Assembly: GCF_013409625.1 (NCBI RefSeq)
Contig: NZ_JACCBF010000001.1
Coordinates: forward strand, 2,545,001 to 2,609,000
Reading direction: 5' to 3'
Length of the DNA: 64,000 bases
DNA from: Nocardioides kongjuensis
Lineage (GTDB): Bacteria; Actinomycetota; Actinomycetes; Propionibacteriales; Nocardioidaceae
A program made the position numbers and the translations under genes. Below, piece by piece: positions 18,680 to 38,514 of this stretch. Each line of letters starts with the position of its first letter. Positions within the stretch are counted from its first letter, which is position 1. The notes beneath the pieces are model-generated. The model searched no databases and was not told where the DNA came from. It saw only the letters and a list, made by a program, of their open reading frames with translations.

Positions 18680-18837
18680 CCGCTGTAACACGTGGTTCGC
18701 CGCTGTGGGGGGCCGGTGCCGTATGTAACACGTCGTTGGCCCCACCACCCGCCACGTGTCACCTCTGGCAGCCCCGTGCAGCCCGGCATTCGGGTGGTCT
18801 CGGGGCGGGTAGTGCAGCGAACCACGTGTTACAGCGG
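18680..18837. repeat. 158-bp intergenic inverted-repeat element with four copies of a GTAACACGTnGTT core
   Basis: The 294-base gap between mec and the desaturase holds no gene. Its outer arms, 18680-18700 and 18817-18837, are perfectly complementary over 21 bases. The core GTAACACGTGGTT occurs forward at 18685-18697, as the variant GTAACACGTCGTT at 18725-18737, reversed as a partial copy at 18750-18762, and reversed in full at 18820-18832. The copies therefore nest as two hairpins. No target-site duplication is obvious at the edges. It could be a mobile palindromic element (MITE/REP type), an operator array, or a large RNA hairpin after the desaturase gene. Confidence 0.75.
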
Positions 18838-34260: not shown

Positions 34261-34348
34261 GGAATCACCTCTGAAGAGGCGAAACCTGCGCTTCCCGGCC
34301 GTTGCAACGGTCAAGAAGCGCGGGAATCGCCTCTTCAGAGGTGATTCC
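34261..34348. repeat. 88-bp near-perfect palindrome downstream of the helicase gene
   Basis: Arms 34261-34282 and 34327-34348 are perfect complements over 22 bases. Towards the centre a 7-base stem (GCGCTTC/GAAGCGC) and a 12-base perfect palindrome CCGTTGCAACGG at the exact centre continue the symmetry, with two small mismatched bulges between. About 38 of 44 positions pair. It begins 12 bases after the helicase stop and ends some 28 bases from the iron box. It may be a terminator, but size and symmetry recall a palindromic mobile element or a recombination/protein-binding site. Confidence 0.75.
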
Positions 34349-38476: not shown

Positions 38477-38514
38477 TGAGACATCACTGTCTCACATGAG
38501 ACAGTGATGTCTCA
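38477..38514. promoter_or_regulatory. Two tandem TetR operators, TGAGACA-N4-TGTCTCA
   Basis: Site 1 (38477-38494) TGAGACA-TCAC-TGTCTCA and site 2 (38497-38514) TGAGACA-GTGA-TGTCTCA, two bases apart. Each is a 7-4-7 palindrome and the two sites are exact reverse complements of each other, centre spacing 20 bases. They overlap the likely -35 (TTGAGA) and -10 (GACAGT) region of the tetR-MFS operon. Expected to bind two TetR dimers on one or opposite faces about two helical turns apart. Confidence 0.85.

What the first reader, a model, noticed from the sequence alone, without database searches (positions are those of the whole stretch)
18680..18837. Perfect 21-bp inverted repeats enclosing two further copies of the same core
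The gap between mec and the desaturase contains four copies of a GTAACACGTnGTT core in the order forward, forward, reverse, reverse. The outer pair is identical over 21 bases; the inner pair is degraded. No gene or known operator explains it. It resembles a palindromic non-autonomous mobile element or a cooperative operator array rather than a simple terminator, because the core is direct-repeated as well as inverted.
Basis: seen in the sequence. Interest (0 to 1): 0.72.

Follow-up and report, generated by a model that had tools for sequence, protein, structure and literature searches.

The report
Dispersed palindromes paired with a nuclease
This palindrome is one of dozens of copies scattered through a soil bacterium's genome, and relatives of it bracket genes for a predicted DNA-cutting protein that databases call an antitoxin, which points to a small mobile DNA system of a kind not recognised before, as far as could be checked.

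Summary
The repeat is real and is one copy of a dispersed family. The host genome (a Nocardioides relative) holds 32 copies of a 110-bp palindrome, TGTAAC...GTTACA, with near-fixed geometry. The window copy (18724-18833) carries an extra 40-bp half-unit (18684-18723). In the orthologous mec-desaturase gap none of 19 other genomes has the full element; one keeps a 39-bp remnant.

Matching palindromes bracket genes of one protein family: 23 of 28 Nocardioides genes, against 1 of 30 control loci. Eight distant homologues, from six other genomes plus a third paralogue here, are all bracketed, each by its own palindrome. The protein is a predicted fusion of an AbiEi-antitoxin-like half and a Vsr/I-Bth0305I-like homing-endonuclease domain. 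Palindrome type tracks protein type (Mantel r 0.62). Copies show no target-site duplication.

The architecture is that of REP-RAYT, but the enzyme is unrelated. I infer that the nuclease spreads the palindromes; binding, cutting and movement are untested. Nine open-access literature searches listed no paper describing it.

The parts
18680..18837 (.). whole palindromic stretch: outer half-unit plus 110-bp element plus a few flanking paired bases
18684..18723 (+). outer 40-bp half-unit (optional extension), starting with core TGTAACACGTGGTT at 18684-18697
18724..18833 (+). 110-bp palindromic element TGTAAC...GTTACA; model R1 covers 18722-18835
18724..18737 (+). left terminal core TGTAACACGTCGTT
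18820..18833 (-). right terminal core TGTAACACGTGGTT

Best explanation
The window feature is a non-autonomous palindromic element of a REP-like family, served in trans by two paralogous genes elsewhere on the same chromosome (C1:5383206-5384267 minus strand and about 5295903-5296931 plus strand). Each encodes a fusion of an AbiEi-antitoxin-like module (winged helix plus C-terminal domain) with a Vsr/EDxHD-type homing-endonuclease fold. Shown here by sequence: dispersal, near-fixed geometry, presence/absence at orthologous sites, bracketing of the nuclease genes by a pair of cognate palindromes, palindrome type tracking protein type, no target-site duplication. Inferred: the AbiEi half binds the TGTAAC-headed arms; the nuclease cuts at or near a palindrome, or at a target resembling a half-unit; repair or recombination then copies a palindrome, rarely palindrome-gene-palindrome, into the site. 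The 40-bp half-units may be landing sites or remnants.
Against: No binding, cutting or movement was observed. G020 and G108 have 9 and 8 R1 hits but no gene hit at 1e-30; G113 has the gene only at 1e-75, though bracketed. 15 genomes have the gene at E <= 1e-80 and fewer than 8 R1 hits: of the 10 of them read, 9 carry palindromes with other inner letters and one locus is truncated; 5 were not read. Most genomes have 1-2 gene copies, many at shared positions, which fits vertical inheritance as well as mobility. Five of 28 genus genes fail the matched-pair test (L151, L156, L157, L162, L169), and two truncated loci (L163, L166) were dropped before that count. In the phylum search 191 of 198 genomes had no match at 1e-20. 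The Mantel correlation is confounded by shared ancestry.
Confidence: 0.75

Rival explanations
1. The palindromes are dispersed binding sites of an AbiEi-type DNA-binding protein that regulates genes or organises the chromosome; the copies beside the gene are autoregulatory operators, and copies arose by ordinary duplication.
For: AbiEi binds inverted repeats at its own promoter (PMC3985639, passages). Spacing is near-fixed at 40 and 94-95 bp. Family-1 copies are biased to the origin-proximal half: 19 of 23 loci, p 0.0026.
Against: Palindromes lie on both sides of the gene. Copies prefer convergent gaps, 11 of 25 against 8 of 95. The second family in the same genome shows no significant origin bias (18 of 31, KS p 0.23). 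Sites are gained or lost between species. The protein has a nuclease fold with invariant acidic residues.
Confidence: 0.15
2. The palindromes are MITEs or REPs moved by a conventional transposase (DDE type or a RAYT) encoded elsewhere; the association with AbiEi-nuclease genes is secondary.
For: Short elements of fixed length with inverted ends. An IS256-like transposase gene lies between two copies in L054.
Against: 0 of 37 copies with a target duplication of 3 bp or more. The bracketing is seen around AbiEi-nuclease genes and recurs with unrelated palindrome sequences in distant homologues. No genome-wide search for RAYT genes was run, so this rival is not fully tested.
Confidence: 0.06
3. 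A structured RNA or a bidirectional transcription terminator.
For: Each copy folds strongly, -47 to -83 kcal/mol as RNA; many lie between convergent genes. The covariation score of the full hairpin, 0.124, exceeds all 500 shuffles (mean 0.097), though the tool warns that relatedness alone can do this.
Against: Cells paired 70.7% against 69.3% in shuffles; number of extra pair types no higher than shuffled. The only Rfam match at E <= 1 is far below its gathering score, 16.6 against 145.1 bits, and outside the element. It does not explain bracketing of nuclease genes by clade-specific palindromes.
Confidence: 0.04

Closest known systems
REP sequences with REP-associated tyrosine transposases (RAYTs)
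   Same: Gene flanked by two cognate palindromes, dispersed further copies, gene and palindrome changing together, gene less conserved than its neighbours (passages of PMC2817692; here)
   Different: The protein is AbiEi plus a Vsr/EDxHD-like nuclease domain, not a Y1 (Pfam01797) transposase. Palindromes are 48 to about 114 bp, not the 20-40 bp of REPs with GTAG/CGTC tags (title and start of abstract of PMC3733652).
EDxHD homing endonucleases (I-Bth0305I) and Vsr endonuclease
   Different: Here fused to an AbiEi module and bracketed by palindromes; no intron or phage target was looked for or seen
AbiE type IV toxin-antitoxin systems
   Same: AbiEi_4 domain in 26 of 26 members at E <= 0.1; fold of residues 1-198 like AbiEi 6y8q; a studied AbiEi binds inverted repeats (PMC3985639, passages)
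   Different: Extra nuclease domain; no nucleotidyltransferase among the neighbours examined
MITEs of DDE transposons (recalled, no call)
   Same: Short, non-coding, inverted ends, intergenic
   Different: No target-site duplication in 37 copies; the whole element is a palindrome

Membership tests
REP-RAYT | gene flanked by two cognate palindromes | tested here: met
   matched pair at 23 of 28 genus genes and 6 of 8 distant homologues (8 of 8 with a palindrome on both sides), against 1 of 30 control loci
REP-RAYT | many dispersed copies of the palindrome | tested here: met
   32 places; second family 33+37 core hits; 14, 12 and 11 copies in three other genomes. Fewer than the 37 to 427 perfect copies quoted for Stenotrophomonas REPs (PMC2817692, passage)
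REP-RAYT | protein is a Y1/HUH tyrosine transposase (Pfam01797) | tested here: not met
   hmmscan of 26 members gives AbiEi_4 in 26 and no Pfam01797 among the 8 families listed; fold matches AbiEi and I-Bth0305I/Vsr
REP-RAYT | GTAG or CGTC tag at one end of the repeat | tested here: not met
   palindromes read here start TGTAAC, GAAACT and other heads
MITE of a DDE transposon | target-site duplication | tested here: not met
   0 of 37 copies with 3 bp or more; 2-bp matches as frequent as in mispaired flanks. Tested in three relatives, not in the window genome
AbiE toxin-antitoxin system | AbiEi-like antitoxin domain | tested here: met
AbiE toxin-antitoxin system | adjacent AbiEii nucleotidyltransferase gene | tested here: not met
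   neighbour representatives: 7 of 10 have a Pfam family, none a nucleotidyltransferase; 3 of 10 have no hit; UvrD-type helicase on one side of the commonest position. 52 neighbour clusters exist, so a sample
EDxHD homing endonuclease | Vsr-like catalytic fold with acidic residues | tested here: met
EDxHD homing endonuclease | cuts a long specific target and copies its own gene into it | not testable with these tools
   needs biochemistry and genetics

The most novel reading that the evidence does not exclude
A class of selfish palindrome systems found in several actinobacterial families and evolved independently of RAYT-REP: an AbiEi-EDxHD endonuclease recognises its own clade-specific palindrome and spreads it by cutting and repair, without target duplication. 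Many genes now named 'type IV toxin-antitoxin system AbiEi family antitoxin' would then be palindrome-spreading nucleases, not antitoxins.
Probability: 0.6. Interest if true: 0.93.

Novelty: categorically new. Interest (0 to 1): 0.87.

Why it matters
It ties unexplained intergenic palindromes to one identifiable protein family. It suggests that bacteria evolved REP-like systems more than once with unrelated enzymes, gives a possible role to Vsr-like/DUF559/MTES_1575-like nuclease domains, and questions the antitoxin label of many genes. How such palindromes spread becomes directly testable: one protein of about 350 residues and one DNA of 70 to 114 bp.

Tried and rejected
Known RNA or plain terminator: one Rfam match far below its gathering score and outside the element; mixed, weak covariation. 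Canonical MITE: no target duplication. Species-specific repeat: the exact two-arm pattern hit 1 of 39 genomes, but model R1 hit 39 of 147, so the first result was a matter of sensitivity. Composite transposon: an IS256-like gene lies between two copies in L054, but the other twice-bracketed genes in G000 are AbiEi-nucleases. Sequence search of solved structures: one hit at E 0.26, a designed protein. parS, attC, MtrA and GlnR sites were considered from memory only and not tested. Other AbiEi_4 hits in G000: 0 of 5 bracketed, but distances were taken from the domain hit, not from gene ends, so this is no firm control; one search shows single palindromes near some of them.

Literature: nine searches of open-access PMC, listings only, many cut short (shown of found: 20 of 247, 20 of 66, 20 of 41, 5 of 5, 10 of 13, 12 of 81, 6 of 6, 8 of 652, 10 of 188). 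No listed title or abstract start links AbiEi/DUF559 proteins with bracketing palindromes. bioRxiv and most subscription papers are not held, so novelty is provisional. Three papers were opened for passages: PMC2817692, PMC3943268, PMC3985639.

Full report
What is in the window. Three exact cores TGTAACACGTnGTT lie at 18684 (+), 18724 (+) and 18820 (-).

It is a dispersed family. The genome G000 is one contig of 5,673,606 bases; that it is a Nocardioides is inferred from the named genomes with the same element. The core gives 40+34 hits at up to 1 mismatch and 0 for the reversed control. Model R1 gives 64 hits, 32 places found on both strands. Thirty copies align over 114 columns, 26 without a gap and 4 with one. 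Terminal cores start 95 bp apart in 26 and 94 bp apart in 4. An extra half-unit starts exactly 40 bp outside on the left at 8 loci and on the right at 3. Some loci hold two or three units in tandem. By a simple codon-usage gene caller all 30 lie between genes, one overlapping a gene end by 7 bases. Of 25 element-bearing gaps 11 are convergent, against 8 of 95 other gaps of at least 20 bp (p 1e-4; the caller is crude and the comparison gaps come from the same loci). With dnaA at 4.118 Mb, 19 of 23 loci lie in the origin-proximal half (p 0.0026).

It comes and goes. The desaturase was found in 31 of 147 genus genomes at E <= 1e-50 and 30 loci were read. R1 hits only the window's own locus. In 19 others mec follows the desaturase after 17-159 bp without the full element; in one more mec is about 1.1 kb away, and in nine no mec was found within 1.5 kb. 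One of the 19, G095, keeps a 39-bp stretch like the outer half-unit. G095 is probably N. albidus, as its locus L116 has the same element and flanks as the N. albidus locus L081. Two further orthologous gaps have a full element in N. albidus and a fragment in G000; a third has the element in both.

The family is older than the species. The exact two-arm pattern hit only G000 among 39 genomes. In the named collection it hit 13 stretches in N. albidus, N. sp. J54, N. caeni and a Nocardioidaceae MAG. R1 hit 39 of 147 genus genomes at E <= 0.001, 24 of them with 8 or more hits (hits count both strands and 25 candidates per genome were scored, so these are not copy numbers).

The partner gene. Comparing neighbours of copies in different species showed one gene family beside them. 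In G000 the genes with an element on each side are two paralogues of an AbiEi_4 protein (5383206-5384267 and about 5295903-5296931) and an IS256-like gene. The gene was found in 96 of 147 genomes at E <= 1e-30. Of the 24 genomes with at least 8 R1 hits, 21 have it at E <= 1e-80, against 15 of the other 123 (p 5.5e-13). A sequence-blind palindrome finder on the flanks of the 30 best genes shows palindromes starting TGTAAC and ending GTTACA beside most of them, including genomes that R1 had missed, with clade-specific inner letters. Two counts: requiring GTAAC/GTTAC ends, 23 of 30 on both sides, 3 on one side, 4 none, while one shuffle of each locus gave 7 palindromes and none with TGTAAC...GTTACA; requiring palindromes that share a 12-base word, 23 of 28 (two truncated loci dropped), against 1 of 30 desaturase loci; palindromes of any kind on both sides 25 of 28 against 7 of 30. 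Arm distance follows protein distance: Mantel r 0.62, 0 of 9999 permutations, n 25 of 26, confounded by ancestry.

Wider than the genus. A profile of 26 members matched 7 of 198 genomes of the phylum at E <= 1e-20, G000 included (10 candidates per genome were scored). All eight further genes read (seven in six other genomes, one the third G000 paralogue) have palindromes on both sides, and the palindromes differ between them; 6 of 8 pass the shared-word test, L186 and L191 do not. The third paralogue (1241784-1242683) lies between 48-bp GAAACT palindromes, and their core has 33+37 hits at up to 2 mismatches in G000 against 4+2 in the control.

No target duplication. In G113, G102 and G132 the cognate palindromes occur 14, 12 and 11 times; 36 are 70 bp and one is 71 bp. 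None has a direct duplication of 3 bp or more; 2-bp matches are as frequent as in mispaired flanks. G000 has one unpaired hit to that pattern.

Interpretation. PMC2817692 (passages) describes RAYT genes as always flanked by two REPs, co-evolving with them and less conserved than their neighbours: the same architecture with a different enzyme. PMC3985639 (passages) shows an AbiEi protein binding long inverted repeats at its promoter, so binding of these palindromes by the AbiEi half is plausible. PMC3943268 (passages) says that EDxHD homing endonucleases bind very long targets and dimerise. From these I infer a selfish palindrome-nuclease system. Binding, cutting, copying and any benefit to the host are untested. 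I rate it categorically new because it fails a defining feature of each family considered, while it works, in outline, like REP-RAYT; that rating rests on a limited literature.

Noticed in passing
window 34261-34348: Strong 88-bp palindrome (GGAATCACCTC...GAGGTGATTCC) with a head unlike either family described; owner unknown.
   Followed up: no
window 38477-38514: 38-bp palindrome TGAGACATCACTGTCTCA...; perhaps an operator or another small palindrome family.
   Followed up: no
G000:C1, 140135 to 5615673: Second dispersed family of 48-bp palindromes (GAAACT...AGTTTC), belonging to a third AbiEi-nuclease paralogue at 1241784-1242683.
   Followed up: partly
G000 loci of family 1: Family-1 copies lie mostly in the origin-proximal half (19 of 23 loci); the second family shows no significant bias (18 of 31). 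No explanation.
   Followed up: partly
L054:4300-5496: IS256-like transposase gene between two family-1 elements (4261362 and 4262960).
   Followed up: partly
L196 (G014), gap between desaturase and mec: A different palindrome of 34 bp occupies the same orthologous gap, so this gap may receive more than one palindrome family.
   Followed up: no
L158 (G075) and L173 (G158): Partner genes with an in-frame stop are still bracketed by palindromes, which suggests decaying systems.
   Followed up: no
L164, L165, L166, L167, L168, L169, L171: In this clade a further TGTAAC palindrome lies about 1 kb out, beyond a UbiA-type prenyltransferase gene.
   Followed up: no
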